A DNA stretch of 64,000 bases from Clostridium saccharobutylicum DSM 13864 (GTDB lineage Bacteria; Bacillota; Clostridia; Clostridiales; Clostridiaceae). The stretch is from the NCBI RefSeq assembly GCF_000473995.1, contig NC_022571.1, positions 1,204,501-1,268,500 of the forward strand. The letters are read 5' to 3'. A program made the translations under genes and the position numbers. Below are positions 28,999 to 45,387 of the stretch, piece by piece. The notes beneath the pieces were generated by a model, which searched no databases, was not told the DNA's origin, and saw only the letters and a list, made by a program, of their open reading frames with translations. The first letter of the stretch is position 1; every line of letters starts with the position of its first letter.

Positions 28999-29027
28999 AG
29001 GTTGTGACGGAAGGAGGCAATAATAAA

Positions 29028-30137: not shown

Positions 30138-30164
30138 GCACCTTGCACAAGGTGCTTCTTTTTA
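30136..30164 (+). terminator. rpoD terminator
   Basis: AAGCACCTT (30136-30144) pairs with AAGGTGCTT (30149-30157) around GCAC, followed by CTTTTTA. It is compact, GC-richer than its surroundings, and overlaps the rpoD stop codon. Confidence 0.93.
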
Positions 30165-30175
30165 AGTAATATATT

Positions 30176-30411
30176 TTAGGTACATTAAAAAAATAATAAA
30201 TTTATATGCTAAGTATATTTTGAATTAAAGGAAGCTTGATTCGTATATGCTTAATGAGTATTCACAGGGCAAGCAATTATCATTAAATCGTGGGCTTTTC
30301 AGTACATGTTATCAAATTCGTATAATAGTCTGCTATGAGAACAATTTGCTTTTTTCTGATGAAAAATATTCATGACATTTTGGATTTATTATTTCCTTTC
30401 ATGTCTGTTAA
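30176..30411. repeat. Family 2 intergenic repeat, longest form
   Basis: The left end TTAGGTACATTAAAAAAAT with AATAAATTTA is complementary to the right end TGGATTTATTATTTCCTTTC with ATGTCTGTTAA. Both match family 2 ends elsewhere. The interior carries its own partial palindrome (CTTGATTCGTATA and ATCAAATTCGTATA). It fills most of the rpoD-trmK gap. Confidence 0.55.
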
Positions 30412-30513
30412 CAGTTAAAAATGTTAATAATTTGAAAAAAATTCAATTATTAATTAAATATTTTGAATGATAAAAATTCATAGTGTACTACTTTATAAAA
30501 AGGTGAGGTAAAA

Positions 30514-31206
30514 ATGGAATTAAGTAAGAGATTAGATTGGATTGTAGGAAAGCTCAATAAGTGTGAGGTTATAATGGACGTAGGGACAGATCACGGATAT
30601 ATTCCTATATATTTAGTTAAGAACAATATAGCAAGCAAGGTTATTGCATCAGATATAAATAAAGAACCTCTAAAAAAAGCAAAGATCAACGCAACGTTAG
30701 ATGGAGTTTTAGATAAAATAGATTTAAGATTAGGTGGAGGTTTAGCTCCGTTAAATGATAAAGAAGCACAAGGAATAATAATTGCTGGTATGGGCGGAAA
30801 TCTTATTAGAGATATATTAGAAGCAGATTTAAAAAAAGTTAAAAATATGGATTATTTAATCCTTCAACCTGCACAAAATCCAGAAGTTTTAAGAGAATAT
30901 TTATATACTAATAATTATCAAATTATTGAAGAAGATATATGTAAAGATGAAGGGAAATACTACGAATTATTTAAAGTAAAATATAAAAAAGGAGATTATA
31001 TATCATTAGAGCCTATATTTTATGAAATAAGTCCTTCTCTTTTAAATAAAAAATCTTTAGTTTTAAAGGAATACATAGAAGATAAAATTCAGAAGTGTAA
31101 GAAGGTTATAGAATTTATTACTGAAAATACCGAACATGCAATACAAAGAAAAGAAGAATTAAATAAAAAAATCAACACGTTAGAAAAACTACTAAAAGCT
31201 TTTTAA
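30514..31206 (+). CDS. trmK: tRNA (adenine22-N1)-methyltransferase TrmK
   Basis: A 230-aa SAM-dependent methyltransferase of the TrmK (COG2384) family. Motifs are VIMDVGTDHGYIPIYL, VIASDINKEPLKKA and GIIIAGMGGNLIRDIL. The C-terminal helical arm ends in a coiled coil. AAAAGGTGAGG precedes the ATG. Placement after rpoD and before a NIF3-family gene is typical of Firmicutes. Confidence 0.94.
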   Translation: MELSKRLDWIVGKLNKCEVIMDVGTDHGYIPIYLVKNNIASKVIASDINKEPLKKAKINATLDGVLDKIDLRLGGGLAPLNDKEAQGIIIAGMGGNLIRDILEADLKKVKNMDYLILQPAQNPEVLREYLYTNNYQIIEEDICKDEGKYYELFKVKYKKGDYISLEPIFYEISPSLLNKKSLVLKEYIEDKIQKCKKVIEFITENTEHAIQRKEELNKKINTLEKLLKAF

Positions 31207-31217
31207 GGGGTGTTATT

Positions 31218-32009
31218 ATGACTAAGATAAAAGATATTATAAGAGAAATTGAAAAGTTTGCACCTAAATGTCTTCAAGAAGATTATGATAATGTAGGATT
31301 AATGGTTGGAGATGATGAAAAGGAAGTAAAAAGAGTGTTATTATCTTTAGATTGTACTAATGATGCAATTGAAGAGGCAACAAATCTTAAGTGCGATTTG
31401 ATGATAACACATCATCCTTTATTTTTTAGAAAACCTAAACGCATAGTAAAAAAAGATCTTTTAGGGAATAAAGTAATTAATCTAATAAAAGAAGATATAA
31501 CTCTGTATTCATGTCATACAAACTTAGATTCTGCAAAAGATGGTATTAATGAAACAATAGTTAAAATGCTTGGTTTTAATTCATGCATAACTTTAGAACC
31601 TAATGAAAGCAGAAATTATAAAGAAGATGGAATAGGAAGATTGATAAAGTTGGATAATCCAATTTCATTAAACAATCTCGTAGATTTAATTAAAAAGACA
31701 TTAAATATAAATAATATGAAAATTGTTAAAGGAAATGAAAAGGTAACTACTTTAGCAATAATAAATGGAAGTGGGCAAGATTTATTTCCATTAGCTAAAA
31801 GTTTTGGAGCTGATTGTATTATAACTGGAGATACAACGTATCATTTTGCATTAGACTATAAAGAAATGGGAATAAGTATAATTGATGCAGGACATTTCTC
31901 AACAGAGTATATAGCATTTTTAAAAACTTTAGAATTTCTAAAGAAAGAATTTAATGATGTAGAATTTATGGCATCAAAAACATGCCAAGATCCATATGAG
32001 TTTGCTTAA
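31218..32009 (+). CDS. NIF3-like dinuclear metal-centre protein
   Basis: A 263-aa NIF3/YqfO-family protein. Metal ligands are suggested by MITHHPLFFRKPK, SCHTNLDSAKDGIN and the C-terminal DAGHFSTEYIAF. The family binds two metal ions; its biochemical role is debated (GTP cyclohydrolase I type 2 is a common but unproven label). It lacks the CutA-like insert of the longer Bacillus form. It is 11 bases after trmK and cotranscribed. Confidence 0.92.
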   Translation: MTKIKDIIREIEKFAPKCLQEDYDNVGLMVGDDEKEVKRVLLSLDCTNDAIEEATNLKCDLMITHHPLFFRKPKRIVKKDLLGNKVINLIKEDITLYSCHTNLDSAKDGINETIVKMLGFNSCITLEPNESRNYKEDGIGRLIKLDNPISLNNLVDLIKKTLNINNMKIVKGNEKVTTLAIINGSGQDLFPLAKSFGADCIITGDTTYHFALDYKEMGISIIDAGHFSTEYIAFLKTLEFLKKEFNDVEFMASKTCQDPYEFA

Positions 32010-32125
32010 GCTACAGATATTTCAAAACTTTAATCTGTCGCAAACTGCATAAAGTTTAAGAACTAAATCATGGTATATGTGCATATATTATTTTGATAAT
32101 AATTTTATGGAGCTATATAAGCGCG

Positions 32126-32437
32126 ATGAGTAAAGATGATGATTTAAAAAATAGTGCTGGAAATGCTTTGAAAAAAGATTTTTCAAATATATTAAAACAT
32201 AGCAAAAGATTAGTTAAGGGATTTTTTCGAGGGGGAAATAGGGGAAATGGATGTGATAGAAGAAGACCTCCATTTGGAGGACCACCATTTTTTAAGCCCA
32301 GATCACCTTGGGTTATGCTATGTTATCCGAAATTAATTGTTGCAGGAATAATAGCCTTAACATTATTACTTTGTGGTGTTAGCATATATGGATTAATAAT
32401 AATAATTTTATTAATATTAATATTTATTTTGATATAA
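32126..32437 (+). CDS. Small membrane protein, unknown function
   Basis: From ATG 32126 the product is 103 aa starting MSKDDDLKNSAGNALKKD. A basic, Gly/Arg/Pro-rich middle (GGNRGNGCDRRRPPFGGPP) is followed by two hydrophobic segments at the C-terminus (about 70-103). An earlier in-frame start at 32093 would add 11 residues. The ribosome binding site is weak (GGAG 13 bases upstream). The family was not recognised; the gene lies just before rnpB. Confidence 0.55.
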   Translation: MSKDDDLKNSAGNALKKDFSNILKHSKRLVKGFFRGGNRGNGCDRRRPPFGGPPFFKPRSPWVMLCYPKLIVAGIIALTLLLCGVSIYGLIIIILLILIFILI

Positions 32438-32483
32438 TTAAAAAAACATTTGTATAATTAAAAAAAGTATGTTAGTATATATC

Positions 32484-32832
32484 TTGCGAGTAAGACGTGC
32501 AATCGCTGCTAGACTAGATCTAGGAGAGGAAAGTCCGAGCTCCATAGGGCAGGGTGCTGGATAACGTCCAGTCAAGGCAACTTGAAGGAAAGTGCAACAG
32601 AGATATACCGCCTAAGATTTTCTTAGGTAAGGGTGGAAAGGTGATGGTAAGAGCTCACCAGCGTGATGGCGACTTCACGGCTATGTAAACCCCACTTGGA
32701 GCAAGACCGAATAGAGAGGCATTAAGGGGCTGCCCGTCCCGCCTCTGGGTGCGTCGCTTGAGCTTATTGGCAACAATAAGCCTAGATAGATGATTGCTTA
32801 ATACAGAACTCGGCTTATGGCTTATCTCGCAA
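32484..32832 (+). ncRNA. rnpB: RNase P RNA
   Basis: Catalytic RNA that cuts the 5' leader from pre-tRNA. The conserved core GAGGAAAGTCCGAGCTCC is near 32523 and ACAGAACTCGGCTTATGG near the 3' end, together forming P4. The ends TTGCGAGTAAG and CTTATCTCGCAA pair as P1. Other landmarks are GGGTGCTGGATAACGTC and AGACCGAATAGAGAGGC. The length is about 349 nt. The 91-bp direct repeat of the putative element starts at the next base. Confidence 0.97.
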
Positions 32833-32923
32833 CAAGTAATTGCAAGGATTTGAGGAATACCGTTTGGGTATTTTCCCTTAACTTTCCCTTGCTTTTTTTG
32901 TGTACAAAACATTTGATAGAATA
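32833..32923. repeat. Direct repeat, left copy (candidate attL)
   Basis: A 91-base segment that matches 39462-39552 at 83 of 91 positions with no gap; the first 28 bases are identical. It begins immediately after rnpB, contains its terminator, and runs into the 3' end of an integrase gene on the minus strand. This is the layout expected for a junction of an integrated element. Confidence 0.75.
32842..32899 (+). terminator. rnpB terminator
   Basis: GCAAGGA (32842-32848) can pair with TCCCTTGC ahead of seven T, and an inner stem GAATACC/GGTATTTTC adds to the structure. The right-hand repeat copy has substitutions that mostly keep this fold. Confidence 0.7.
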
Positions 32924-33092
32924 TCTGTAGCTTCGGTATTCATTTCTTTTGTTACGTGAGCATAAATATCTGATGTTGTCTGCATTATAGAATGACCTAA
33001 ACGTTCTTGAATTATTTTCATTGATATGCCACTTTTCAATAATATGGTTGCATTACTATGCCTAAGATCATGCCAACGAATATATTTTTCTA
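32878..33092 (-). pseudogene. Tyrosine recombinase (integrase), C-terminal fragment
   Basis: Only about the last 70 residues remain. They carry the core active-site region RWHDLRHSNATILL (Arg and His), ERLGHS (His) and the catalytic tyrosine in SDIYAHV. The frame continues upstream without a stop into ISLre2 transposase sequence, so the N-terminal part has been replaced and the product would not be a working integrase. The stop lies inside the direct repeat beside rnpB, as expected when the attachment site follows the int gene. Confidence 0.85.
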
Positions 33093-33999
33093 TGTCACTT
33101 CTTAATTTGTACGGTGTTAATCCATTTCTATTGTGAACTAAATAATCATATAATTCTATAAGCTTCTTAAATGCAATATATTCTTCATTAGTAAGTATCA
33201 GCATATTTACAATAACTTCTAGACCTTCATCAATTTTACCTTCCCTAAATAGCTTTAGTAATTGCTTTTGAAATCTTTTATCACTTATTTTACGTATAAT
33301 TGATTGGCTTATGTGAAATAGATCTAATTGAAAATGAATGCCTTGATCCTCACAAGTTGCTTTAATCCACTTGCTCCATCACCGTTTAATATTCTAGTTT
33401 GAATTTCATCTACATTGTATTTTTCTGCAATTGTTGCGCCAGTAAGCTTTTTAAAGTGATTAGAATTGCTAAAGCTTGCACAAACAGTTTTATCAACAAC
33501 TACATATTCCTTTTTACTGCCCGGACGTAAAGTCCAGCCGATATATGATACTGCTAGTTTTAACTTTTTCTTTTTATTTTTCCCTTTCGTTCTATCCTTA
33601 CCTGAAGATAGAGCCAAACGCCATCTTGCTTCTGGAATAATACATATATTTCCTTTTTGCCTTTTAATATACCTTTGTCATTTAATTCAATTTTACGATT
33701 TTCTAGTTCTTTAATCTTTTCTCCAACTGTTTGAACTACGTTCCAAACGCCTTGAGCGCTAATTTCTTGATTGCACATAGTTTTAATATTATCAGATGCC
33801 TTTCTAAAAGAAACCTCCGTCACGTTAGTTAAAATAGTTTCAACGAGATTTATAGACACATTTCCTATAGTGTCCATCCTTAAATACTCATCCAAAGACT
33901 TTGATATGCTTTTCAAGACCTTGCAAGCTTCATCGCAAGCATATTTATAAAATCTTTTTTCTAACTCCTTGAAAGTAAATCCATTATCATTAAGAACTA
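33093..33999 (-). pseudogene. ISLre2-family transposase remnant, frameshifted
   Basis: Reading on the minus strand, the pieces NGFTFKELEKRFYKYACDE, EISAQGVWNVVQTVGEKI, KLAVSYIGWTLRPGSKKEY, RILNGDGAS and IHFQLDLFHISQSIIRKI fit one ISLre2 (UPF0236) transposase in order. They lie in three frames. One shift near 33605 fits loss of four bases at TGGCTCTA. Another near 33370 fits loss of one T (AGTGGATT for AGTTGGATT). The C-terminus is cut and joined to the integrase fragment near 33092; the N-terminus breaks at about 34000 against another IS remnant. Not functional. Confidence 0.85.
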
Positions 34000-34002
34000 A
34001 AA

Positions 34003-34390
34003 TTTTAGAGACGCATATATATTGTGGTATTTATGCTATGTTTGTTGAACTTATCAATCCTGAAACTAGACTGTGTGCAATAGATGGCACTGCTTTAAGA
34101 AGTTCAAAATACGATAACAAAGCTAAATCTGGTAAGGGTACACGTCTTGGATACTATAAAGGTTATAAATTGCATTGTATTGCAGCTGTTAGTGATATTA
34201 TAATTCCCTTGGTTTTTGATTTAATAACAGCTAATGTTTATGACAATCAAGTCTCAGATTTACTATATGAAGCTAAATTTATAACCCATTTTTAATACTT
34301 GTAGATGCAGCATATGATTCAGTAAAATGGTTTGAAATTGCTTATAGATTAGAATTTAATTTGTTAACTAAAAAATTATTACTTTTATAA
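34003..34390 (+). pseudogene. DDE transposase remnant (IS4/IS5-like)
   Basis: The piece LCAIDGTALRSSKYD with GKGTRLGYYKGYKLH and IIPLVFDLITANVYDN resembles the central catalytic part of an IS4/IS5-superfamily DDE transposase. A frameshift near 34285 moves to a second frame that continues FLILVDAAYDSVKWFEIAY and stops at 34390. N- and C-terminal parts are missing. The family name is a best guess from the motif pattern. Confidence 0.7.
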
Positions 34391-34531
34391 ATCACTATGG
34401 AAATATTATAAAATAAAGTTGTTCCCTATTTAACATGCATTATTTACATAATATGCTATAATAGTTACATATTTATAAGAAAATCACAATAATAAATTTT
34501 AAGAATGGGAAAGTTTTTGGAGGTATTAAAA

Positions 34532-35121
34532 TTGGAAAGAATGCCATATAAACGACCAACTACACATTATGATGAAAGAATTAAAGAACTAGATGAAAAA
34601 ATATGTGAACTAATTAATAAACGTAAGAATGCTTCAGATAATGATCCAGGTTATCCACCTTTTGAATACATTTCTAACTGGGCAAAAAAATTTGATTTAT
34701 ATGAGGATTTATTAAAATCAGTATTTCAATCGTTTTGGAATGAAAAATTATATAAACCTGTAGTTAGGCCAAAAGAATTTACCAGTGTTAAAATTAATAG
34801 AAAGAGATAACCGCCTTTTTTTCTATAATTTTTATTCGTCAGTATTCAAATTCCAGTGTTGTGGGTTTTTGCATAGATTTGAACAATATAAGCAATTCAT
34901 CCTAAAACCAGCCACGACATACTAGTTTTGGATTGTCTATAAATGAAAACTATGATTGTCGAATACTCGACATGTGTGGAGGTAATGGACATTCTCATTA
35001 TAACTTTGTTGTATCACCTTTACTACCTGATAATATTTCTGGAATTAAATTGATTTTTAAAGAATATAGTTTATCTCGCATTGATGAAACTATAGATAAT
35101 GAGATTGTAATAGAGTTATAA
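34532..35121 (+). pseudogene. Decayed gene of unknown function
   Basis: From TTG 34532 (GGAGG eight bases upstream) the first frame runs to 34810 and encodes MERMPYKRPTTHYDERIKEL onward, with a helical charged N-terminus. After that, fragments in other frames continue the protein: FYNFYSSVFKF and HRFEQYKQFILKPATTY near 34825-34925, then INENYDCRILDMCGGNGHSH to 35121. At least two frameshifts and a stop separate them. It was probably one protein of roughly 190 aa. The family was not recognised. Confidence 0.6.
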
Positions 35122-35168
35122 TAAATGATTTAATTTGATTAACTTATTAAACGAGTATAAACAAATTG

Positions 35169-35183
35169 ATACCTTGTAGGTAT
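35169..35183. promoter_or_regulatory. Perfect dyad upstream of the hydrolase operon
   Basis: ATACCT-TGT-AGGTAT is a perfect 6-bp inverted repeat with a three-base centre, 66 bases before the operon start. Its size suits a dimeric helix-turn-helix protein, so it is a candidate operator for the XRE-type response regulator of the operon. No second copy was found by eye and no clear promoter boxes are nearby. Confidence 0.3.
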
Positions 35184-35249
35184 ATATAAAAAAAGATAAA
35201 AATTGGTAATAATGTAATAAAATGATCATGAAATGTGGGGGATGTTACT

Positions 35250-36194
35250 TTGAAAAAAATTATATCATCCATAGCAGATAGTTATGGATTATGGGACTTA
35301 AATAAAACATATAGCAAAATTAATCAATTTCATTATGATGAAATTGAAATCGCTAAATTAATAGGTGATTATCAAAAGTTTTATTTTAAGCCAGATTTAC
35401 CTAAAATTAAGTTTGAAAATAATAGGATTATATTTAAAAGCCAGGTACATAATGAAGAATGTAATAGGGATGCTATATTTTATACCGATTTATATTCAAA
35501 TGAAACAAAAGAAAATGTAAGTATTATAATGATCCATGGTTGGAGATCTGAAAAGTTAAATAGATTAGAACCTGTGTTTTTAGACGAATTTAAAAAGAAA
35601 CAATATAATACATATAGGTATATTTTACCTTATCACATGGATAGATGTGATAAATTAAATTATAGTGGAGAATATTTTTATAGTGCCAATATTAATAGGA
35701 CATTGAAATCAATTAAGCAGTCTGTTAATGATATAAGGGCTTTAATTACATATCTAAAAGAGAATAATAATAAAGTTGTTATTATTGGATTATCTTTGGG
35801 TGGATTGGTAGCAAATTTAATAGCAGGATGTGAAAAAAATATTGATTTGCTTATATCTATATTTCCAGCAAATAGTTTAGCATTCACAAGTTTTAAATCA
35901 GAAGTAGGGAAATATGTAAAGAGGGACTTTTTAGAAAAATCTTTTGAATTTAATAAGTTAAGTGAAATTTGGACAATTATAAATCCAAGTTTGAACAAGC
36001 CTATAATTGATTTGAATAAAATATTATTAATCCAAGGAGATTATGATAAATACGTTTTATATGAAGATACTAGGAAAATTTCTGAAAATTGGGGAATAAA
36101 AAATGAACTATTAAAATGCGGGCATTCAGGGATTGTTATTAATAAAAAGGAAATTAGAAATAAAGTTATAGACTTTATAAATAAAGAATTGTAA
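35250..36194 (+). CDS. Alpha/beta hydrolase of a signalling operon
   Basis: A 314-aa alpha/beta-hydrolase-fold protein without signal peptide. The oxyanion region IIMIHGWRS is followed by the nucleophile elbow IGLSLGG (Ser182), an acid in IQGDYDKYV and the histidine in LKCGHSGI, so the triad looks complete. The N-terminal 80 residues are a charged extension. GGGGGATG supports TTG 35250 over GTG 35235. The stop is 13 bases before a histidine kinase gene, so it is the first gene of a three-gene operon. The substrate is unknown. It could make or remove an acyl or ester signal sensed by the kinase (inference only). Confidence 0.82.
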   Translation: MKKIISSIADSYGLWDLNKTYSKINQFHYDEIEIAKLIGDYQKFYFKPDLPKIKFENNRIIFKSQVHNEECNRDAIFYTDLYSNETKENVSIIMIHGWRSEKLNRLEPVFLDEFKKKQYNTYRYILPYHMDRCDKLNYSGEYFYSANINRTLKSIKQSVNDIRALITYLKENNNKVVIIGLSLGGLVANLIAGCEKNIDLLISIFPANSLAFTSFKSEVGKYVKRDFLEKSFEFNKLSEIWTIINPSLNKPIIDLNKILLIQGDYDKYVLYEDTRKISENWGIKNELLKCGHSGIVINKKEIRNKVIDFINKEL

Positions 36195-36207
36195 AGGTGA
36201 TACTGTT

Positions 36208-37992
36208 ATGTATATGGTCGGTACAATTTTCGGATTAGTTGTAACTGGAATTATAATATTAATAAAAGATAATGAAACTGAATCTACATGGTGGTTAGCA
36301 GGCTTTTTACTTTTATGCGGTTTAGGTGCATTTTCATCTATAACTACAAATTTATTTATTAATAAAGTAGATTCTAAAACTATGGATTTAGTATATTATA
36401 TTAGTGCATGGTTATCAGTTTCTGCTCATTATTTAGCACCAGTTTGTATACTGATTTATTCAATGATTTATTCAAATTTAAAAAGTAATAAAATAGTATA
36501 TATGCTACTATTTATTCCAGAAATTTTATGCTATATATTATTACCAATAAAAAATAACGATTTAAAAACAACAACAGAATTTTTAAACTACATGAGAATA
36601 TTATGTATTGTTGAGTTGCCTTATTTATTTTCTTCTATTGCGTTATTAATATATTCCTTTGTAAAGGAAAAATCTTATCTAATAAAAAAGTATAAGTTAG
36701 TTAATATAGTTGTTATAGTACCAGGACTTGTTTACATAATTTTATTTAATTTTATATTAAGGGCTATTGGAATGGAAAATTCTTGGAAGGCATTTTCTAT
36801 TTTAATACCAATACATTTTTTGATATTTATTTACTTCGCAAATAAGTTTGCAGTATTTGGGGTTACTATGAAATTTGATAAATATAATTTTGCTTTTGAA
36901 AATATTATTGACTATATTACCGATTCGATTATTATCATAGACGAAAAGTTAATAGTAAAAGAAGTTAATAATATATTTTACAAAAAGTTTCAACTTAATA
37001 AGGAGAAGGAATATCAGGAATATAAAAACTTGATAAGAGAGAGTAGTTTGAGAAATTATGAGGAGTTATTAACTAATTTAATAGATAAGGCTCATATGAC
37101 AAGAACTAATCAATCTATGCAAATAGAAGTTGTAGCTGAGGAAGTTGCTTATTTTGAAGTACAGGTAAATTGTGTAATAGTAAAGGGTGATTATTTTGGT
37201 ACAATAGTCTTCTTTAAAGATATAACTGCTCAAAAGAAGAACATGGAACTTATGATAGAAAAAGAGAGATTAATGTCTTTAAGCCAACTTATTGGAGGAG
37301 TAGCACACAATTTAAAAACTCCAATTATGAGTGTAGCAGGAGGTCTTTCAATAATAAAAAAAGATACTAATAAACTATATCCTTATTTCAACGATGACAA
37401 TAATGATGATATTGAAAAATTAATGGTGGAAATAAATTCCTGGCATGAAAGAGGACAAGCATATCTACGTTATATGACTGATATTATTAACGCAATTAAA
37501 AGTCAGTTAAAAGATTTCGATCAAAATAAGAAAGAAAATTTTCTTATAAAGGATGTTATTAAAGATATAGTTTTATTAATGTCGTATGAATTAAAGAAGA
37601 ATAAATGTAAATTAATACAAGAAATAAATATAGATGATTCAATAGAAATTGCTGGTGATATTAATTCTTTAATTCAAGTATTAAATAATCTTATAAGTAA
37701 TGCTATAAGTGCAGTAAAATATAATACAAATATAACTTTAAGTGTTTATAAGGAAAGTAAAAATATTGTATTTGCTGTGACTAATGAAGGGAATATTATA
37801 CCAGAACACGTTCAGAAGAAAATATTTACAGAGATGATCACTACAAAAGGTAAGGATGGGACAGGACTAGGTCTATATATAGCCAAATCTATTATAAAAA
37901 GTAGATTTAAAGGTGATATATATTTTAATAGTGACAATGAGATGACTACTTTTTTTATAAAAATACCAACAAAGGAGCAGAAAAATGAATAA
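36208..37992 (+). CDS. Seven-TM sensor histidine kinase with PAS domain
   Basis: A 594-aa membrane kinase. Seven hydrophobic helices occupy about residues 2-219 with no large outer loop, which suggests sensing within the membrane or of a small or lipophilic ligand. A PAS domain follows (about 225-345). The phosphoacceptor box is GGVAHNLKTPIMSVAGG with His367, then the N box LNNLISNAISA, and a G box GTGLGLYIAKSI. An acidic loop (FNDDNNDDIE) is inserted after the H box. The last eight bases overlap the response regulator start (ATGAATAA), so the pair is translationally coupled. Confidence 0.9.
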   Translation: MYMVGTIFGLVVTGIIILIKDNETESTWWLAGFLLLCGLGAFSSITTNLFINKVDSKTMDLVYYISAWLSVSAHYLAPVCILIYSMIYSNLKSNKIVYMLLFIPEILCYILLPIKNNDLKTTTEFLNYMRILCIVELPYLFSSIALLIYSFVKEKSYLIKKYKLVNIVVIVPGLVYIILFNFILRAIGMENSWKAFSILIPIHFLIFIYFANKFAVFGVTMKFDKYNFAFENIIDYITDSIIIIDEKLIVKEVNNIFYKKFQLNKEKEYQEYKNLIRESSLRNYEELLTNLIDKAHMTRTNQSMQIEVVAEEVAYFEVQVNCVIVKGDYFGTIVFFKDITAQKKNMELMIEKERLMSLSQLIGGVAHNLKTPIMSVAGGLSIIKKDTNKLYPYFNDDNNDDIEKLMVEINSWHERGQAYLRYMTDIINAIKSQLKDFDQNKKENFLIKDVIKDIVLLMSYELKKNKCKLIQEINIDDSIEIAGDINSLIQVLNNLISNAISAVKYNTNITLSVYKESKNIVFAVTNEGNIIPEHVQKKIFTEMITTKGKDGTGLGLYIAKSIIKSRFKGDIYFNSDNEMTTFFIKIPTKEQKNE

Positions 37993-38611
37993 AGGAATAA
38001 GTATAGCCATAATAGATGATGAAATAGGAATAATTGATACACTAGAATCTTTTCTAGGTGATAAATATTATGTTGAAGGATTTATAAGTTCAAAAGAGGG
38101 ATTGGCAGCATTAGAAAAAGGTGACTTTGACTTATTAATATTAGACTACTTTATTGATGATTTAAATGGCAAGGAAATTGTTGATGAAATAAGATCATTT
38201 AATCCATCAATGTACATAACATTATTAACAGGATACGCAGAAGAAGTTCCAGCGATGAAGTCATTAGATGAAATGGATATACAAGGATACATTGAAAAGA
38301 CAGGGGATTTTGAAAAAATAATCGTATATATAGAAGCGATAATAAAATCAATAGAATTTTTTAAAGGAAATAGCATACCATTGAATAAAAAGATAGGTCA
38401 AAGAATTAGATCATTAAGAAAATCAAATAATTTAAGTCAAAGTGATGTTGCTAAATATTTAGATGTTAAAACAAATTCCATATCGCAATATGAGTCTGGA
38501 TCATCAGGATTAACAATAGAAAATGTTTTGAAATTAGCAGAACTATTTAACGTAACAACTGATTATATACTTTGCTATACGTTAAATGTTAGAAATAGGG
38601 CCTTTCGTTAA
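37985..38611 (+). CDS. Response regulator with XRE-type DNA-binding domain
   Basis: A 208-aa regulator. The receiver domain (about 1-120) has the acidic pocket AIIDDEIG, the phosphorylation site LLILDYF (Asp54), the switch LLTGYAEE and the lysine in YIEKTGD. After a short linker comes a Cro/C1-type helix-turn-helix (about 135-195): IGQRIRSLRKSNNLSQSDVA, SISQYESG, LAELFNVTTDYIL. Most transcriptional response regulators use OmpR, NarL, LytTR or Fis-type output domains; the XRE type is uncommon. It is coupled to the kinase gene and followed by a clear terminator. Confidence 0.9.
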   Translation: MNKGISIAIIDDEIGIIDTLESFLGDKYYVEGFISSKEGLAALEKGDFDLLILDYFIDDLNGKEIVDEIRSFNPSMYITLLTGYAEEVPAMKSLDEMDIQGYIEKTGDFEKIIVYIEAIIKSIEFFKGNSIPLNKKIGQRIRSLRKSNNLSQSDVAKYLDVKTNSISQYESGSSGLTIENVLKLAELFNVTTDYILCYTLNVRNRAFR

Positions 38612-38637
38612 ATTTAGACTATTTTCGTAGATTTATT

Positions 38638-38665
38638 TAGAGTATCTAAAGGATACTCTATTTTT
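38638..38665 (+). terminator. Terminator of the hydrolase-kinase-regulator operon
   Basis: TAGAGTATC (38638-38646) pairs with GATACTCTA (38652-38660) around a five-base loop, followed by TTTTT. It lies 26 bases after the response regulator stop. Confidence 0.9.
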
Positions 38666-39072
38666 GTGATGTTATTTAAGTGAAATAATATAAGTAAATA
38701 TCAACAAAATTGACATTTGATATGAAAATATTTTTTAAAATGATATTTTGTATTGACGTTAAAATTTGGAATTGATATAATGAAAAAAATGAAAAATATA
38801 CAAAAATTTAATATTTATAACAAAATTGTATAAGAATAAAATAATTGAAGTATATTTCTGAAATAAACTAGTAGAAATTTTTATTAAAAAAACATCATCC
38901 GAATTAGATATGTGGAGACACATGTTATATAATACAATAACTAATAATAAAGAATTAAATAATGGTTATATATCAAAATCAAGTAAAAAAATGGGATGCG
39001 GTTATTATTGAAGCATACAAAAAACAACTTGATAGAAATAATGAATAATATTTATAGAAAGGTGAGGCTTTT
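38666..39072. other. AT-rich stretch inside the element, no clear gene
   Basis: No convincing gene. A 28-codon frame starting at ATG 38962 (MVIYQNQVKKWDAVIIEAYK, ending at 39048) looks like the end of a small protein, and an overlapping frame starts MWRHMLYNTITNN near 38911. Together they suggest a frameshifted remnant of a short gene. Confidence 0.35.
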
Positions 39073-39252
39073 GTGGTAATTAGGGAAGTAATAGAAATAT
39101 TTAGGGAAGATACTTCAATTAAAAGGTTCAAAAAAGAAATTGAATTATTAAAGGATGCTGGATATGTAGTATTTGAGGAAAACAATGATTATGTACGTTT
39201 CTACCAATCTGCAAAGGTATTTAATTCACATTTATATGCTGAAAAAAAATGA
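39073..39252 (+). CDS. Small protein of 59 aa, unknown function
   Basis: A GTG start preceded by AAAGGTGAGG (39058-39067) opens a 59-residue frame, VVIREVIEIFREDTSIKRF near the start and ending SHLYAEKK. It is mixed-charge, with no membrane segment. The good ribosome binding site is the main support. It lies between the signalling operon and the right direct repeat. The family was not recognised. The rest of the gap to the right repeat (39253-39461) holds nothing recognised. Confidence 0.5.
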   Translation: MVIREVIEIFREDTSIKRFKKEIELLKDAGYVVFEENNDYVRFYQSAKVFNSHLYAEKK

Positions 39253-39461
39253 AAGTAAAAATCTGCAAGTGAAATTAGCATTAACTATGGAATTTTCATC
39301 ATTATGTATGGTTTGATTTAATAGACTATTATTAAGATATGGTCATCATAATAAAGTTTATCTATTTTCATTATAAATAGTTGCATGTGTAAAGTAATAA
39401 CAAATACTTGATTTCTGATAAAATAAATTTTTATATTTCGTGGTATTCAAATCTGCATGGC

Positions 39462-39552
39462 CAAGTAATTGCAAGGATTTGAGGAATACTGTTTGAGTAT
39501 TTTCCTTTAAATTTACCTTGCTTTTTTTGCGTGCAAAACATTTTATAGAATA
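39462..39552. repeat. Direct repeat, right copy (candidate attR)
   Basis: The second copy of the 91-base repeat found beside rnpB (83/91 identical, first 28 bases perfect). On the minus strand it can still encode the last residues of the integrase (NVLHAKKAR, stop). rnpB sequence itself does not precede it. It marks the right edge of the putative element. Confidence 0.7.
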
Positions 39553-39858
39553 GAAGGATAATTTTTTTGATTCCTCCGACGGCTATTTTTAAAAAAATAT
39601 TTTTGAGGAAAATATTAGATTTTATTAAGAGAATATCATAGAATTTATATTTTAGCTTAAGTGATAGGATAATTATTGAACTTGAAGGATAGCTATTTGA
39701 GCGAATATAAAAAGTTTTGAGAGAAGATTAGTGTATTATAGAAAAATTTAAAAGATAACAGAACTAATTTGCAAAAAAACGTATAAATATTTTATTGACT
39801 TTTATTAGAAAAAAATGGGATTATTATTATATAATAGTTGTAGGAGAGGGATGACAGT
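39553..39858. other. AT-rich gap right of the element
   Basis: About 300 bases with no open frame of note. TTGACT at 39795 and TATAAT at 39830 are 29 bases apart, too far for a normal sigma-A promoter. GTAGGAGAGGGATG just before 39859 is a ribosome binding site for the next small gene. Confidence 0.4.
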
Positions 39859-40089
39859 ATGGATAATATAGAAACCAATGTAAATATAGTATTAGAAAAA
39901 GTAAAAGAATCACCAACAATACAATCTGGTAAAAAATCAATAGCAATATTATCTAGTAATAATGCAAATTTAAGTATTCAGGATTTTGATGAAGCAATTG
40001 AGTATATATGGAAAAATAACTTATTAAAAATATTAAAAGTAGAACGTGAACATATATATATAATGAAAATATATGTAGATGTTGCTTAA
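39859..40089 (+). CDS. Small protein of 76 aa, unknown function
   Basis: Encodes MDNIETNVNIVLEKVKE and onward, 76 aa, predicted mostly helical with no membrane segment. GTAGGAGAGGGATG precedes the ATG and a strong terminator follows the stop. The family was not recognised. It lies convergent to the germination genes. Confidence 0.6.
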   Translation: MDNIETNVNIVLEKVKESPTIQSGKKSIAILSSNNANLSIQDFDEAIEYIWKNNLLKILKVEREHIYIMKIYVDVA

Positions 40090-40110
40090 TGATTTTAAGA
40101 AAAAATATAA

Positions 40111-40172
40111 AGCACAAAGTAAAGACTTCATATTATTCGTGTATGAAGTCTTTACTTTATGCTTTGTATTTT
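40111..40172. terminator. Strong bidirectional terminator
   Basis: AAAGTAAAGACTTCATA (40116-40132) pairs perfectly over 17 bp with TATGAAGTCTTTACTTT (40142-40158), and AGC/GCT extends the stem. A- and T-runs flank it on both sides, so it serves both the 76-aa gene and the minus-strand germination gene. Confidence 0.93.
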
Positions 40173-40191
40173 TATGTAATTAAATTAATTA

Positions 40192-41610
40192 TTATTGAAC
40201 TTTGTTTGAAATTCTTGTTCTAAAAATTAAGTTTTTAAGTTTTATCCAATTGAATGGAATCAAAGGATAAAAATAAGGCTCGCCAGTTATTGTCTTTGAA
40301 CTTGCAGCTACTATAAGACCTATTACCGTTCCAAGTATGAGCCCCCAAAATCCAATTGTTCCGCACAATATTATTAACAGTGTTCTCAGAAATTTAAAGG
40401 CATAATTCAGTTCTATACTTGGTTGTGCAAAGCCTGCGAGTGAAACCACAGCAGAATAAAGTATGGTTTCATTTGTAAACCAACCTGTTGTTACTGCATA
40501 TTGTCCAAGTATCAATCCGCCAATTATTGAAAGTGAACTTCCAAGCGGATCAGGCGTATTTAATGAAGCCAATTTTAAGCCATCAACAGCAATTTCCAAA
40601 ATTATGAATTGTGTGGTTATAGAAACCGCAGAGGGTTTTTCTGGCCGTATAAAATCAAAAGAACTCGGCAAAGTAATATTCCCATTTGCAAATAAGATAA
40701 AGACTGGAATTAAAAATATATTGAAAAATATTACAACATTTCTTATAAGTCTTAAATAATTTCCAGTAAAATTGGGAAAATAATAATCATTTACATCTTG
40801 AAGAAAATCAAAAATTCCAGTTGGAAGAATCATAGCAGTAGGAGAGTTATCAACTAATATAACTATTTTTCCTTCAACAATGTGAGCTGCAGCAACATCA
40901 GGTCGTTCAGTATACCTAATTTTAGGTAATGGATTAAGCCAATTCTTTGAAAGTAGCAAATCTACTAAACTTTGATCACCAACAGTTAGAGCACCTATAG
41001 ATAAGCTATTGATTTTTTGAATTATGACGTCAAGGGCTCTTTTATCAACAACCTTATCTAAATATACTAAACATACATCAGTCTTTGATATATAACCGAT
41101 AGAATGCATTTCACATATTAATCTAGGATCTCTTATTCGTCTTCTAATTAATGCTGAATTAAGAATAATTTTTTCAACAAAACCATCTTTTGAACCTCTT
41201 AAAGTTTTTTCTTTAGCTGGTTCGGATGTACTTCTGCCAGCATAAGCACGTAAATCCATAACTATAGATGAATCAAAACCATCTATAATTATTACTGTCT
41301 GACCAGTGAGCAACCCATCTATCATCTTATCTAAGTCTTTTTGAGGTTCTACTGATACATGAGGAATTTCATTGTCTATAAAACTATTAATATCTGTATA
41401 TGACTCCATTCTCGATTCAGATATATTATTAAAAAAATTTCTTAGTATCTGCTGCATAATATCATCTTTAACAAATCCTGATAAGTAATAAATTAAAGCA
41501 TGTTTTCCACCAATGATTATGGTTCGTTCAATAATATCAAAACTTTCTTTTACAGTTAATCGCGAGTTGATTTGTTCCATATTTTCTAAATAGTTTGATG
41601 AAATTTTCAA
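40192..41610 (-). CDS. GerA-family spore germination protein (SpoVAF-like)
   Basis: A 472-aa inner spore membrane protein of the GerA A-subunit/SpoVAF family. The soluble N-terminal part (about 1-280) includes GFVEKIILNSALIRRRIRDP and RYTERPDVAAAHIVEGKI, followed by the signature DNSPTAMILPTGIFDFLQ and several membrane helices to the C-terminus (RPEKPSAVSITTQFIILEI, GQYAVTTGWFT). The start is TTG 41610 with AAGAAGG upstream. No gerB or gerC partners are beside it, which favours a SpoVAF-like or orphan receptor role. The two csp-like genes upstream on the same strand make a germination block. Confidence 0.88.
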   Translation of the reverse strand: MKISSNYLENMEQINSRLTVKESFDIIERTIIIGGKHALIYYLSGFVKDDIMQQILRNFFNNISESRMESYTDINSFIDNEIPHVSVEPQKDLDKMIDGLLTGQTVIIIDGFDSSIVMDLRAYAGRSTSEPAKEKTLRGSKDGFVEKIILNSALIRRRIRDPRLICEMHSIGYISKTDVCLVYLDKVVDKRALDVIIQKINSLSIGALTVGDQSLVDLLLSKNWLNPLPKIRYTERPDVAAAHIVEGKIVILVDNSPTAMILPTGIFDFLQDVNDYYFPNFTGNYLRLIRNVVIFFNIFLIPVFILFANGNITLPSSFDFIRPEKPSAVSITTQFIILEIAVDGLKLASLNTPDPLGSSLSIIGGLILGQYAVTTGWFTNETILYSAVVSLAGFAQPSIELNYAFKFLRTLLIILCGTIGFWGLILGTVIGLIVAASSKTITGEPYFYPLIPFNWIKLKNLIFRTRISNKVQ

Positions 41611-41813
41611 AAATCTGACCTTCTTTCGTAAATAAATATAATCAATGAAAAAACTCTTGCCTAATTATTGAAAAGCATATTAAATTTGCTTATCATCCAT
41701 TGTAGTACAACACATACAAATATTATGTGTTGTATATTCGAAGTTATGCAGAAATTATAAAAAAATGTTTATTATTTGTAGAAAAAATATGGTAGTGGTA
41801 AAAATTATTAATT

Positions 41814-43547
41814 TTATGTCATATTTTGAAACATTGCTAATATATTTAACATCCCATATCCCCATTGTGGATTAGGATATATATCGCCAACACGTGTAGA
41901 AGTTCCACGTGAAAGATAAGTGGCTATTGTTTGAGAGTACATAAATGGATCATTGCCATCAACAATTCCCCATTCAAACAACATAGCACAAGCACCAGCA
42001 ACTATTGCAGCTGAAACACTGGTACCATTTACTACTGTGGTTTTATTACCAGGAGCGACAGTAACTGCATCTACTCCACCAGCAGCAACATTGATTACAT
42101 TAATGTAATCATTTATAAATGCCATACCGGAATAATCAACAATATTATTATTGTTTTGATTGTAGGCAGCAACAGTGATAGCATAATTCGAAGTCCCTGG
42201 AATTGTAACTGTTCCATAAATATCAGCAGGTATAAATCTAGTACCACCAATGGATATACCACTTTGTGGTATCCAAACATTATATTTACCATCTAAAATT
42301 GAATTGCCAATTAACCTTAGTTTCCATATGCCAGGTTGTAAATCATAAAATCGAATACGTATTAATTCATCACCGGTATTTTCTTCTGGTAAATAATAAT
42401 TAACTTTAGTCGTTGTTTTTTCAAATAAAAATGTATAAACTTCAGTATTATTAATTAAAGCAGTTAGTGTGCCTGTGTTTTCACCAGAAGGAGATATAAT
42501 GTCCAGAGACATAATATTTGGAGAATCAATCCAAATTTCAACCCATAAATCTTTTTGTTCAGGAGCAATATTTAATTCTATAGAACTAATACTATTAACA
42601 CTAGATACTATACCAGAAGCATGTCCACCAGCTACACGTTGGTTTCCAGCACCTGTAACAACGGTTATTCCACTATTTATACAAATAGACTCTATAAATT
42701 GTTCTAAAATACCTTTGCCCTTATGACCACCCAAAGTGCTGCCAAGAGGAAGGTAAATAACCAGTGGTTTATTATTTCTTAACGAATATCTATACAAAAA
42801 CTCTAAAGCTGCAAAAATACTTGTTATATTAAATACTGGAACTGTTACGTTAAACCATGCTTCAAATGGTAAATCTTCAATTAACTTTACAACTACGAAA
42901 TTGCAGTTTGGAACGACTCCTTTTAGATTAGGATTTTGACCTGTTGCTCCAATAATTCCAGCCATACTCGTTCCATGTCCAAGTTCATCTCTGGTTGGAA
43001 CTATTTCATAAGGAGACTTTCCTTCTTTATAAGCGTTTATTGCTTCTTGTATTTGGCTTTTAGTATATACGCTTCCAAATGGAACTATGTTGTTTTCAAT
43101 TTCTGATGCAGGACTTATTGTTTGATCCCAAATATATTCAATTCGAGTTTCACCATTTGAATTCATAAATTCATCACTTAAATAATCAATACCGGAATCA
43201 ATAATTGCTACATTGACTCCTCTTCCAGTTAAATTTAGGGGCAAATCTAGTGTTAAAAATTCAGCCTTAGATGCCTGTAGAGGCGAAATTTCTTCAAGTG
43301 TATACATTTCAGCCGGTTTTACATATACAATAGTTGAAAAATGAGGCCCTGCTAAGTTGATGTCATTACCTTGTAATATTATTTCCCTTTTAACAGTTAC
43401 GATAGCGTATTTATTGTTTATTATTATTACATAATAACCAGGATATTTAGAGACTTCTGATTGAATATCTCCTTGATATTGAACAATATAACTATAATAA
43501 TTTACATCTTTAAAAATGTTTTCTGGAACTTTAAATTTCATTTCCAT
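41814..43547 (-). CDS. Csp-type subtilisin-like germination protease, second copy
   Basis: A 577-aa subtilase of the clostridial Csp group (CspA/B/C), which in C. perfringens activates the cortex lytic enzyme SleC at germination. Asp in VAIIDSGIDY, His in DELGHGTSMAGI, the oxyanion Asn in TGAGNQR and Ser in VNGTSVSAAIVAGA are all present, so it should be active. A jellyroll-like insert lies before the serine. The open frame reaches 43568, but GGAGG seven bases upstream supports ATG 43547 (MEMKFKVPENIFKD). It overlaps the end of the first copy by 17 bases. Confidence 0.88.
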   Translation of the reverse strand: MEMKFKVPENIFKDVNYYSYIVQYQGDIQSEVSKYPGYYVIIINNKYAIVTVKREIILQGNDINLAGPHFSTIVYVKPAEMYTLEEISPLQASKAEFLTLDLPLNLTGRGVNVAIIDSGIDYLSDEFMNSNGETRIEYIWDQTISPASEIENNIVPFGSVYTKSQIQEAINAYKEGKSPYEIVPTRDELGHGTSMAGIIGATGQNPNLKGVVPNCNFVVVKLIEDLPFEAWFNVTVPVFNITSIFAALEFLYRYSLRNNKPLVIYLPLGSTLGGHKGKGILEQFIESICINSGITVVTGAGNQRVAGGHASGIVSSVNSISSIELNIAPEQKDLWVEIWIDSPNIMSLDIISPSGENTGTLTALINNTEVYTFLFEKTTTKVNYYLPEENTGDELIRIRFYDLQPGIWKLRLIGNSILDGKYNVWIPQSGISIGGTRFIPADIYGTVTIPGTSNYAITVAAYNQNNNNIVDYSGMAFINDYINVINVAAGGVDAVTVAPGNKTTVVNGTSVSAAIVAGACAMLFEWGIVDGNDPFMYSQTIATYLSRGTSTRVGDIYPNPQWGYGMLNILAMFQNMT

Positions 43548-45387
43548 TAAAAAAACCTCCGAAATCATTTTGGGGAATTCTTATGAATAATTTATTTACG
43601 TAATATTCTATAAATTTATCATCTTCAAGATTGTGTGAGGTATGAATTGGTATACCACGACTATTATTTCTGTATAATCTGCTAATAACATTAAAGACTC
43701 CTAATAAATCAAAATCTCCATATCCAGTCTCTCTGTTAGGGAATTTGTATAATTCATTTCTATATGCACCATAAATTAAATAGCTTACTATTTTTGGAGA
43801 ATACATAGTAGTATCATTACCGTTAATTATTCCCCATTCTAATAAAAGAGCACAGGCTCCAGCAACTATTGCAGTAGCAGCAGAGCTCCCGGAAACAGCG
43901 GTAGTTCCGCCTGAAACTTTTGTTGTTATAATGTTAACACCTATAGTTGCAATATCTGGATTGATTACATTATTAGCATTAAATCCTTTGCCTGAAGAGG
44001 CTATAAGTGAATTACCAGTTCCATAGTATGCAACAGTAACTGCATTTGCAACTGTTCCAGGGATAGTTAATGTATTAAAAGGATCTGGTTCAAGGAAAAC
44101 TAGATTTTCAGGCAAAGTATTATGGGGAGGAAGCCATATGTCGTATCGTCCATTTACTATATAACTTCCAGTTAGCTGTATTTTCCATATGCCTGGTTTT
44201 ATGTCATTAAATATGATTTGAATAACTTCATGTCCTGTAAAGTGCTCAGGAGTATAATATCGTACGAACATTTTAGTATCTGTAAAAACAAAATTATAGA
44301 TTTCACGTGCATCTATTTTAGATTGTATAACGTTTGATGATTCTCCAGTAGGCGAAATTACATTTATAGAAGCCCTATTTGGTCTTTGAATCCATATGTT
44401 AAATGAAAAGTACTTTAATTCTTTAGGGATTTTTAATTCAGATGTTTTTTTATCACCTTTTGTTTTTATATATCCCGATACATGTCCTTGCGCAGCACCT
44501 TCATTACCAACACCAGTCACTATGCAAAGTCCTCTGAAGTTTCCTATGCTTGTTAAATATCTGGAGATTAGATTTGCACTATCATGACTTCCTTCTGTTG
44601 TTCCGACACCTAAATATATAACCATAGGTTTGTTTAGTTTTAAAAACATATTTTTTAAATATTCTAATGCAGCTACAATTTCAGAACTGTTATAAACTGG
44701 TGCGTATGTTACATTATTTTCTTCTAACATTTTTCTGAAATTAGAGGATTCGAAAAGTTTAACAACTACAAATTCCACATCATTTGCAACTCCCTGAAAT
44801 TTATTAGTATACCCTCTGGCGCCCATAATTCCAGCCATATTTGTTCCATGTCCAATAACATCTTTTGAAGGAACAATTTTATAAGGATCTTGATTATTTT
44901 TAGAGGCATTTATTGCTGCGTTAATTTGTTCGTTAGAATAAGTTTCACCAATATATACAGATTCATTGTTGCTGTTTTGAATAGTTTGATCCCAGATGCT
45001 AGCTATTCTTGACGTACCATCTTCCCTTATAAACTCTTGGTTAAGATAGTCTATTCCGGTATCTACAATTCCTATTAAAACATTTCGTCCTGTTAAATTT
45101 AAATATGGATTCATTTTTATATTATTTATGTTATCTACATAAGAAGGCGAAATATCTTGTAATACAAACATTGGTCTAAAGTCAACGAAAACAATTGTTG
45201 GAACATCCTTTATCAATCTATCTAAATCATTTGCACTCACTGCTACAATTCCAATAGTATCAGTGATTATAGCTCCACAAGCATAAGTAATCTTATCTAT
45301 CTGTTCTTTAAAGTTACCTCTATATTCAATTAAATAATTTTCTACACTTGGATCGTAATATAAATTACAAGTACGTAAATTATACAT
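43531..45387 (-). CDS. Csp-type subtilisin-like germination protease, first copy
   Basis: A 618-aa protein homologous to the next gene. Catalytic residues are Asp in IGIVDTGIDY, His in DVIGHGTNMAGI, Asn in VTGVGNEG and Ser in VSGSSAATAIVAGA, where GSS replaces the usual GTS but the serine is kept. A C-terminal extension of about 45 residues (IPIHTSHNLEDDKF onward) is absent from the second copy. CTGGGAGC precedes the ATG. The two copies form an overlapping pair, probably from tandem duplication, as with cspA/B/C in C. perfringens. Confidence 0.88.
   Translation of the reverse strand: MYNLRTCNLYYDPSVENYLIEYRGNFKEQIDKITYACGAIITDTIGIVAVSANDLDRLIKDVPTIVFVDFRPMFVLQDISPSYVDNINNIKMNPYLNLTGRNVLIGIVDTGIDYLNQEFIREDGTSRIASIWDQTIQNSNNESVYIGETYSNEQINAAINASKNNQDPYKIVPSKDVIGHGTNMAGIMGARGYTNKFQGVANDVEFVVVKLFESSNFRKMLEENNVTYAPVYNSSEIVAALEYLKNMFLKLNKPMVIYLGVGTTEGSHDSANLISRYLTSIGNFRGLCIVTGVGNEGAAQGHVSGYIKTKGDKKTSELKIPKELKYFSFNIWIQRPNRASINVISPTGESSNVIQSKIDAREIYNFVFTDTKMFVRYYTPEHFTGHEVIQIIFNDIKPGIWKIQLTGSYIVNGRYDIWLPPHNTLPENLVFLEPDPFNTLTIPGTVANAVTVAYYGTGNSLIASSGKGFNANNVINPDIATIGVNIITTKVSGGTTAVSGSSAATAIVAGACALLLEWGIINGNDTTMYSPKIVSYLIYGAYRNELYKFPNRETGYGDFDLLGVFNVISRLYRNNSRGIPIHTSHNLEDDKFIEYYVNKLFIRIPQNDFGGFFNGNEI

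What the first reader, a model, noticed from the sequence alone, without database searches (positions are those of the whole stretch)
35250..38611. Candidate new signalling system: hydrolase, 7TM kinase and receiver-XRE regulator in one operon
Seen: three genes in the same direction (13-bp gap, then 8-bp overlap), closed by a clear terminator. The products are an alpha/beta hydrolase with a full triad, a kinase with seven membrane helices and no large outer domain, and a response regulator with a Cro/C1-type output. Known: membrane-embedded sensors are used for lipophilic or peptide signals, and hydrolases can make or destroy acyl signals. Inference: the hydrolase shapes a small ester, lactone or lipid signal that the kinase senses. 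I do not recognise this gene set as a described system.
Basis: partly seen in the sequence, partly recalled or inferred. Interest (0 to 1): 0.75.

Follow-up and report, generated by a model that had tools for sequence, protein, structure and literature searches.

The report
Plasmid-transfer signalling cassette stranded in chromosome
Three neighbouring genes, for a predicted enzyme, a predicted membrane sensor and a gene switch, form a set that recurs on bacterial plasmids next to DNA-transfer genes and so likely decides when DNA is passed on; here the set sits alone in the chromosome, and the chemical it would sense is unknown.

Summary
In detail: hydrolase 35250-36194, kinase 36208-37992, regulator 37985-38611, then a terminator. 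The gene set is real. In the host's order, 10 of 218 genomes carry the seven-helix sensor domain; in all 10 the hydrolase lies directly upstream (11 of 11 loci). A second form recurs on plasmids, nearly all of Bacilli: 24 of 30 with the homologous sensor have the hydrolase beside it, and five of the other six a HAD-type hydrolase in that slot. Between the forms, kinase core and regulator output differ; hydrolase and sensor are best conserved. In 8 of 9 such plasmids inspected, and in Clostridium algoriphilum, the cassette lies upstream of conjugation (type IV secretion) genes, a position like that of Rap-Phr/Rco on pLS20. Distant relatives of the hydrolase (RcgR) are published repressors of rhizobial plasmid transfer. 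I infer a plasmid-borne cassette that controls conjugation through a small molecule whose level the hydrolase sets. In the window it is stranded between 91-bp direct repeats behind rnpB, beside a broken integrase: likely a decayed integrative element. Shown: co-conservation, context, repeats. Inferred: conjugation control, ligand, enzyme chemistry. The papers searched do not describe this Gram-positive cassette.

The parts
32487..32833 (+). RNase P RNA gene (rnpB); the island starts at its 3' end
   Evidence: Rfam RF00010, 299 bits
32833..32923 (.). left 91-bp direct repeat (attL-like)
   Evidence: 91% identical to 39462-39552; no other full-length copy in the genome, the third match is 23 bp
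32878..33204 (-). remnant (C-terminal part) of a tyrosine recombinase whose stop codon lies inside the left repeat; named by likeness to the G063 integrase, not searched by itself
   Evidence: ORF; DNA of 32357-33093 is 77% identical to the rnpB-integrase region of relative G063, where the integrase is intact (387 aa, Phage_integrase 103 bits)
33324..34295 (.). decayed transposase-like fragments (33324-33617 -, 33560-33916 -, 33969-34295 +); assigned by eye, no family search made
   Evidence: ORF translations
35250..36194 (+). alpha/beta-hydrolase-fold protein, distant RcgR relative; nucleophile S182 at 35793-35795
36208..37992 (+). sensor histidine kinase: seven predicted membrane helices (36208-36855), weak PAS, HisKA with H367 (37306-37308), HATPase_c
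37985..38611 (+). response regulator: receiver (phospho-acceptor D54, 38144-38146, by motif) and Cro/C1-type HTH_3 (38405-38569)
38638..38660 (+). intrinsic-terminator-like hairpin closing the operon
39462..39552 (.). right 91-bp direct repeat (attR-like)
39539..39590 (+). sequence like that which follows rnpB closely in relative G013, here 6.7 kb away from rnpB
   Evidence: 78% identity over 55 columns, 13 bp behind the rnpB match in G013

Best explanation
The three genes are a conserved cassette of a predicted alpha/beta-hydrolase, a predicted seven-helix membrane kinase and a response regulator that likely controls conjugation genes of plasmids in response to a small molecule whose level the hydrolase would set, and this copy sits in what looks like a decayed 6.6-kb integrative element behind rnpB. 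Shown: the hydrolase and the seven-helix sensor domain travel together in Clostridia and Bacilli while kinase core and regulator output differ; on 8 of 9 hydrolase plasmids inspected the cassette lies upstream of conjugation genes, usually with Cro/C1-type regulator genes between; the window copy lies between direct repeats at the 3' end of rnpB. Inferred: the hydrolase makes or destroys a small, probably acyl-type signal (likely reporting donor density); the ligand acts on the membrane helices; the kinase phosphorylates the regulator, which, directly or through the neighbouring Cro/C1-type proteins, switches the conjugation genes. In the window no transfer genes were seen, so this copy is either an orphan or has been turned to another target; its three frames are intact beside broken mobile-element genes.
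For: Co-conservation: 10 of 218 genomes of the order have the sensor domain, all 10 among the 17 of 225 with the hydrolase (hypergeometric about 4e-13), adjacent at 11 of 11 loci by the coordinates. Plasmids: of 72,556 records 30 hold the Bacilli-type sensor domain (E 1e-5), 25 the Bacilli-type hydrolase (E 1e-25), 24 both and adjacent, one of them a degraded copy. Homology of the two sensor groups: hhalign probability 99.9, E 1.8e-35, 211 columns. Mean identity between the groups is highest for hydrolase (38%) and sensor (29%), lower for kinase core (22%) and receiver (21%). Conjugation: transfer genes downstream on the same strand in 8 of 9 inspected hydrolase plasmids (exception pBS72); C. 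algoriphilum has TrbL (1e-40), a VirB4/TraG-like and a VirD4-like ATPase behind the trio. Relatives: RcgR is a shown repressor of plasmid transfer (PMC9601222, abstract and part 1 of 2 of Results and of Discussion; PMC13055273, abstract and part 1 of Discussion). Insertion. Constraint: dN/dS 0.14-0.28, and 0.33 for the truncated C. puniceum kinase (dS is 1.3-1.6 in the L008 and L009 comparisons, near saturation).
Against: No ligand, substrate or regulated promoter was shown. The window copy has no transfer genes by eye, and no candidate operator near it. Only 2 of 10 clostridial trio loci mapped lie beside transfer genes (L015; L062, degraded, by eye); the other eight, the window included, show none by eye in the stretch held. 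7 of 18 hydrolase loci of the order lack the sensor (three of the seven truncated or with a stop). RcgA, RcgR's rhizobial partner, shows no homology to the sensor (hhalign probability 0.05, two-sequence alignment). One plasmid has the kinase pair without an enzyme, five have a HAD hydrolase instead, and one has the hydrolase without the pair. The C. puniceum copy is broken.
Confidence: 0.6

Rival explanations
1. An envelope or metabolite sensor: the hydrolase remodels a membrane lipid or cell-wall ester and the kinase reads the resulting membrane state; plasmids carry it as cargo and it does not control transfer.
Against: Repeated position in front of transfer genes on several plasmids (L015); RcgR relatives regulate transfer.
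Confidence: 0.2
2. A variant of the main reading: the hydrolase is a signal destroyer (quencher) rather than a maker, removing a self-made or host signal so that the kinase sees only recipients or density changes.
For: Deleting rcgR raises transfer in rhizobia (6.05e-5 against 1.55e-6), which fits loss of a destroyer of an inducing signal; I saw no separate signal-synthase gene in the cassettes mapped.
Against: The same result fits loss of a maker of an inhibitory signal, as on pLS20, where loss of Phr raises transfer; the slot can hold an unrelated HAD hydrolase.
Confidence: 0.3
3. In this window the cassette is a neutral relic that no longer does anything.
For: The surrounding element looks decayed (integrase remnant, transposase-like fragments); no transfer genes; a close relative's copy (C. 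puniceum) is broken.
Against: All three frames, ribosome sites and the terminator are intact; window against L008 and L009 dN/dS is 0.19-0.28, although that average, at near-saturated dS, cannot date the last part of the lineage.
Confidence: 0.25
4. Chance neighbours: the hydrolase is an unrelated gene next to a two-component pair.
For: The hydrolase occurs without the sensor at 7 of 18 loci of the order.
Against: 11 of 11 sensor loci of the order have the hydrolase directly upstream; 24 of 30 plasmids likewise; distances of hydrolase and sensor correlate (Mantel r 0.69 in 10 clostridial, 0.84 in 9 Bacilli-type trios).
Confidence: 0.02

Closest known systems
RcgA/RcgR of rhizobial plasmids (Castellani et al., PMC9601222, PMC13055273)
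   Same: A hydrolase of the same wider family sits next to a many-helix membrane protein on transmissible plasmids, beside transfer genes; RcgR represses transfer.
   Different: The window hydrolase scores 86 bits against the RcgR cut-off of 182, L002 88 and L015 79, while three alphaproteobacterial RcgR score 585, 584 and 288. RcgA-like proteins show no homology to the sensor, and the parts of the papers read describe no kinase or response regulator.
Rap-Phr/Rco quorum sensing of Bacillus plasmid pLS20 (PMC3814332, passages read)
   Same: A regulatory cassette beside a Cro/C1-type (Xre) repressor gene divergent from the conjugation operon; 7 of 8 plasmids with adjacent transfer genes here have an HTH pair, one member divergent, in that place.
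   Different: pLS20 uses a Rap anti-repressor and a peptide; here a membrane two-component pair with an enzyme. On pBS72 a TPR-repeat gene follows the trio; its relation to Rap was not tested.
4z8z, hypothetical protein of Ruminiclostridium thermocellum
   Different: Named hypothetical or uncharacterised in both listings.
Acetyl xylan esterase / cephalosporin C deacetylase group
   Different: 9-13% identity; a shared fold shows no function.

Membership tests
RcgR family (NCBIfam NF047337) | score at or above the curated cut-off of 182 bits | tested here: not met
   86.2 bits, E 2e-24; so a distant relative, not a member by that rule
RcgA/RcgR system | RcgA-type membrane protein encoded beside the hydrolase | tested here: not met
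   sensor alignment A4 (16 sequences) against two RcgA-like proteins: hhalign probability 0.05; the neighbour is a kinase
RcgA/RcgR system | hydrolase lowers conjugative transfer | not testable with these tools
   published for rhizobia; not known here
Two-component system | phospho-acceptor His with HATPase_c, and receiver Asp | tested here: met
   HATPase_c 65.7 bits, Response_reg 57.3 bits; HNLKT at 367 and LLILD ending at D54; HisKA itself below its cut-off (17.5 against 26.9)
Known membrane sensor domains of Pfam | a Pfam match in residues 1-220 of the kinase | tested here: not met
   none up to E 0.1
Rap-Phr (RRNPP) conjugation control | Rap-type TPR receptor and Phr peptide gene in the cassette | tested here: not met
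   window cassette holds hydrolase, kinase and regulator only; no special search for short peptide genes was made
Conjugation-control cassette (working class of this report) | upstream of transfer genes | tested here: inconclusive
   met in C. algoriphilum and in 8 of 9 inspected hydrolase plasmids; in the window no transfer genes were seen
Quorum lactone hydrolase (name given by NCBIfam) | cleaves acyl-homoserine or other signal lactones | not testable with these tools
   name only; the RcgR plasmid pLPU83a does not respond to acyl-homoserine lactones (PMC13055273 abstract)

The most novel reading that the evidence does not exclude
A non-peptide pheromone system for plasmid conjugation in Gram-positive bacteria: a plasmid-coded enzyme (alpha/beta-hydrolase or, interchangeably, a HAD phosphatase, on one plasmid both) shapes a small diffusible signal that a seven-helix membrane kinase reads, replacing the Rap-Phr peptide switch in a like genetic position, with output domains swapped freely between Clostridia (Cro/C1 type) and Bacilli (LuxR-like).
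Probability: 0.35. Interest if true: 0.87.

Novelty: new variant of a known kind. Interest (0 to 1): 0.66.

Why it matters
The Gram-positive conjugation switches met in the papers here (pLS20, passages; pCF10, abstract in the listing) use peptides. A cassette in a like position with a membrane kinase and an exchangeable hydrolytic enzyme would point to a small-molecule language for plasmid transfer in Clostridium, Bacillus, Priestia and Paenibacillus, and would tie the unexplained RcgR effect in rhizobia to a wider enzyme family. It can be tested directly in laboratory strains, and it brings to light a group of orphan seven-helix sensors with no Pfam family.

Tried and rejected
Rejected: chance adjacency. 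Rejected: RcgA as homologue of the sensor (a weak test with two RcgA-like sequences). Sensor fold: model pLDDT 70.8; Foldseek 0 matches at E 0.001, best E 0.046, to class B receptors, so no fold claim. Promoter scan uninformative. A tRNA as insertion site: none found in 28000-42000.

Operator search: the palindrome GTNAGTTWAACTNAC (at least 11 of 13 fixed positions) occurs in pairs 0.14-1.1 kb behind the regulator in 4 of 11 clostridial loci scanned (L015, L016, L062, L063); L014 and L017 hold little or no sequence there. Single or looser matches were also seen in L013, L002 and L034. With the exact paired pattern, 3 of 14 genomes with the hydrolase are positive: C. akagii (G559) has 2, both within 5.3 kb of its trio although the small HTH gene of L015 is absent from that genome; G561 has 3, two beside its trios; G513 has 1, on another contig; C. 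algoriphilum has none because one half-site differs. Against: the pattern occurs in 10 of 116 family genomes (these three among them) and the reversed control pattern in 15 of 116, so its rarity is at chance level and only its place is notable. In the window, one match with two mismatches lies far off at 19635, against 2.25 expected. Kept as a lead only.
Full report
WHAT IS THERE. The three ORFs are as described: hydrolase 35250-36194 (TTG start), kinase 36208-37992 after 13 bp, regulator 37985-38611 overlapping by 8 bp, hairpin terminator 38638-38660. The window lies in a single-contig 5.1-Mb genome with one hydrolase copy.

SENSOR AND REGULATOR. The kinase N-terminus has seven hydrophobic segments and no Pfam match. 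Its model is of middling confidence (70.8) and has no significant fold match (best E 0.046). The rest is a PAS and a HisKA match below cut-off and a clear HATPase_c. The regulator joins a receiver to an HTH_3 domain.

CO-OCCURRENCE IN CLOSTRIDIA. Hydrolase: 4 of 68 genus genomes at E 0.001, one of them a weak 28%-identity match; 17 of 225 order genomes and 5 of 398 phylum genomes at E 1e-20; the window's own genome is counted each time. Sensor profile at E 1e-10: 10 of 218 order genomes, all 10 among the 17; the coordinates put the hydrolase directly upstream at 11 of 11 loci. Seven of the 18 hydrolase loci have no sensor: four with an open frame (G518, G521, G522, G536) and three truncated or with a stop (G484, G588, G481) (contexts of solo genes). 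A separate scan of named genomes, overlapping with this set, gave 18 loci: seven full trios (L008, L009, L011, L013, L015, L016, L017), one cut by the contig end (L014), one broken (L007, C. puniceum), one of Bacilli type (L019) and eight without the pair (L010, L012, L018, L020-L024).

CO-OCCURRENCE ON PLASMIDS. With the window hydrolase, 252 of 72,556 plasmid records match at E 1e-5, most of them rhizobial and relatives. With the sensor domain of a B. subtilis plasmid, 30 match at E 1e-5; with a Priestia hydrolase, 25 at E 1e-25. The coordinates show 24 records with both side by side, one a degraded copy; one of the 24 is filed under Arthrobacter. The hydrolase record without the sensor is Niallia taxi. 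Of the six sensor records without the hydrolase, five carry a HAD-type hydrolase in the same slot (Pfam HAD families for four of the five proteins, the fifth has the same protein accession as one of these) and one has no enzyme gene directly upstream (Niallia Man26). P. filamentosa pBEH1 has a HAD hydrolase and the alpha/beta-hydrolase in a row.

WHAT IS CONSERVED. Clostridial and Bacilli sensors are homologous (hhalign 99.9%, E 1.8e-35). In 19 trios (10 clostridial, 9 Bacilli-type), mean identity between the groups is 38% hydrolase, 29% sensor, 22% kinase core, 21% receiver. The regulator output differs: HTH_3 in the two clostridial proteins searched, a weak LuxR/GerE-like HTH in three Bacilli-type ones (21.8-26.8 bits against 23.5). 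The His boxes differ as well (HNLKT against H[TS]IKN). So hydrolase plus sensor is the stable core.

CONJUGATION CONTEXT. I inspected nine hydrolase plasmids over long stretches, of the 25 found. In eight, transfer genes follow on the same strand; the first annotated VirD4-type or secretion-ATPase gene begins about 4-7 kb behind the regulator (about 14 kb in one with group II introns). Seven of the eight have an HTH pair between, one of the two divergent; in the Arthrobacter record none is annotated. In pBS72 the trio is followed by a TPR-repeat gene and the transfer region is some 28 kb off on the circle. Among the plasmids without the hydrolase, Paenibacillus has VirD4 2.4 kb and Niallia Man26 a VirB11-type gene 3.2 kb behind the regulator; in the other four the 5-kb view shows no named transfer gene. 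In C. algoriphilum the trio lies between replication/partition genes and a small HTH gene followed by DUF3852, TrbL (1e-40) and a VirB4/TraG-like ATPase, with a VirD4-like protein further on. The plasmid contig of G561 begins the same way, by eye, and is then cut by transposase-like genes. The other eight clostridial trio loci mapped, the window included, show no transfer genes by eye in the stretch held; one of them (L017) ends right behind the regulator.

RELATION TO KNOWN SYSTEMS. In rhizobia, rcgR deletion raised transfer from 1.55e-6 to 6.05e-5 and rcgA deletion abolished it (PMC9601222); RcgR represses traR (PMC13055273 abstract; Discussion part 1). How it acts is open; in the parts I read the authors propose binding to a promoter or to TraR and no enzyme product. 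pLS20 uses Rap-Phr and the Xre-type repressor Rco, divergent from the conjugation operon (PMC3814332, passages). A paper that treats pBS72 has none of the words hydrolase, histidine or two-component in its main text (word search in PMC8708921). No paper holds RcgR together with Firmicutes. My searches for a described Gram-positive cassette (listings and starts of abstracts) found none in that library, which lacks most subscription papers.

THE WINDOW COPY. rnpB ends at 32833. A 91-bp repeat begins there and recurs at 39462-39552, 91% identical, with no other full copy in the genome. An integrase remnant ends inside the left repeat. In relative G013, rnpB is followed after 13 bp by sequence like window 39539-39590 (78%): the likely empty site. 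Of six relatives compared this is the only one with that match; G063 has an intact phage-type integrase there, and the other four gave no match at 39539-39590. I conclude that a mobile element probably entered behind rnpB and decayed around the three intact genes. dN/dS against L008 and L009 is 0.19-0.28 (dS near saturation) and against C. puniceum 0.14 for the hydrolase and 0.33 for the truncated kinase, which shows past constraint but not present function.

MECHANISM, STEP BY STEP. Shown: gene order, co-conservation, domain make-up, plasmid context, repeats. Inferred from families: the kinase phosphorylates the regulator. Inferred from position and relatives: the output controls transfer. 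Least certain: the hydrolase makes or removes the ligand. That a HAD hydrolase can stand in the slot argues that the enzyme acts on a signal rather than as a fixed structural partner, but is also compatible with another role.

SCORES. Best explanation 0.6 overall (co-conservation near certain; conjugation control about 0.65; enzyme sets the ligand about 0.4). The rivals are not exclusive: signal destruction is a variant of the main reading, and a relic in the window is compatible with function on plasmids. Novelty: new variant of a known kind, plasmid-coded conjugation control.

Noticed in passing
L117, L118, L119, L121, L153, L128: A HAD-type hydrolase takes the place of the alpha/beta-hydrolase in front of the same seven-helix kinase on five plasmids; a sixth plasmid (L128) has both.
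   Followed up: partly
L015:11816-11860; L016:12548-12592; L062:4634-4679; L063:11034-11069: Paired palindromes GTNAGTTWAACTNAC behind the trio; in C. akagii the two exact pairs of the genome both lie near its trio though the small HTH gene is missing. Possible operator of the regulator; base rate 10 of 116 genomes, reversed control 15 of 116.
   Followed up: partly
L113:3127-4290: In relative G063 an intact phage-type integrase, with phage-repressor-like and ImmA/IrrE-like genes by eye, sits behind rnpB: the site seems a repeated integration target.
   Followed up: partly
L068, L069: Distant hydrolase relatives lie inside what looks by eye like polyketide clusters (FabH-like, acyl carrier, ligase, large synthase), hinting at acyl substrates.
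   Followed up: no
L004, L007: The C. puniceum copy is broken: a stop in the hydrolase frame and a truncated kinase.
   Followed up: partly
L010, L012, L024, L018, L020-L023: Hydrolases without the kinase pair; by eye three lie behind ABC-transporter-like genes in the C. zeae group and three in contigs of B. subtilis relatives.
   Followed up: partly
L124 (CP053689): A plasmid filed under Arthrobacter citreus (Actinomycetota) carries a Bacilli-type cassette and transfer genes; the species name may be wrong.
   Followed up: no
window 40192-45387 (-): A GerA-type spore germination protein gene and two subtilisin-like protease genes lie right behind the island; by eye.
   Followed up: no
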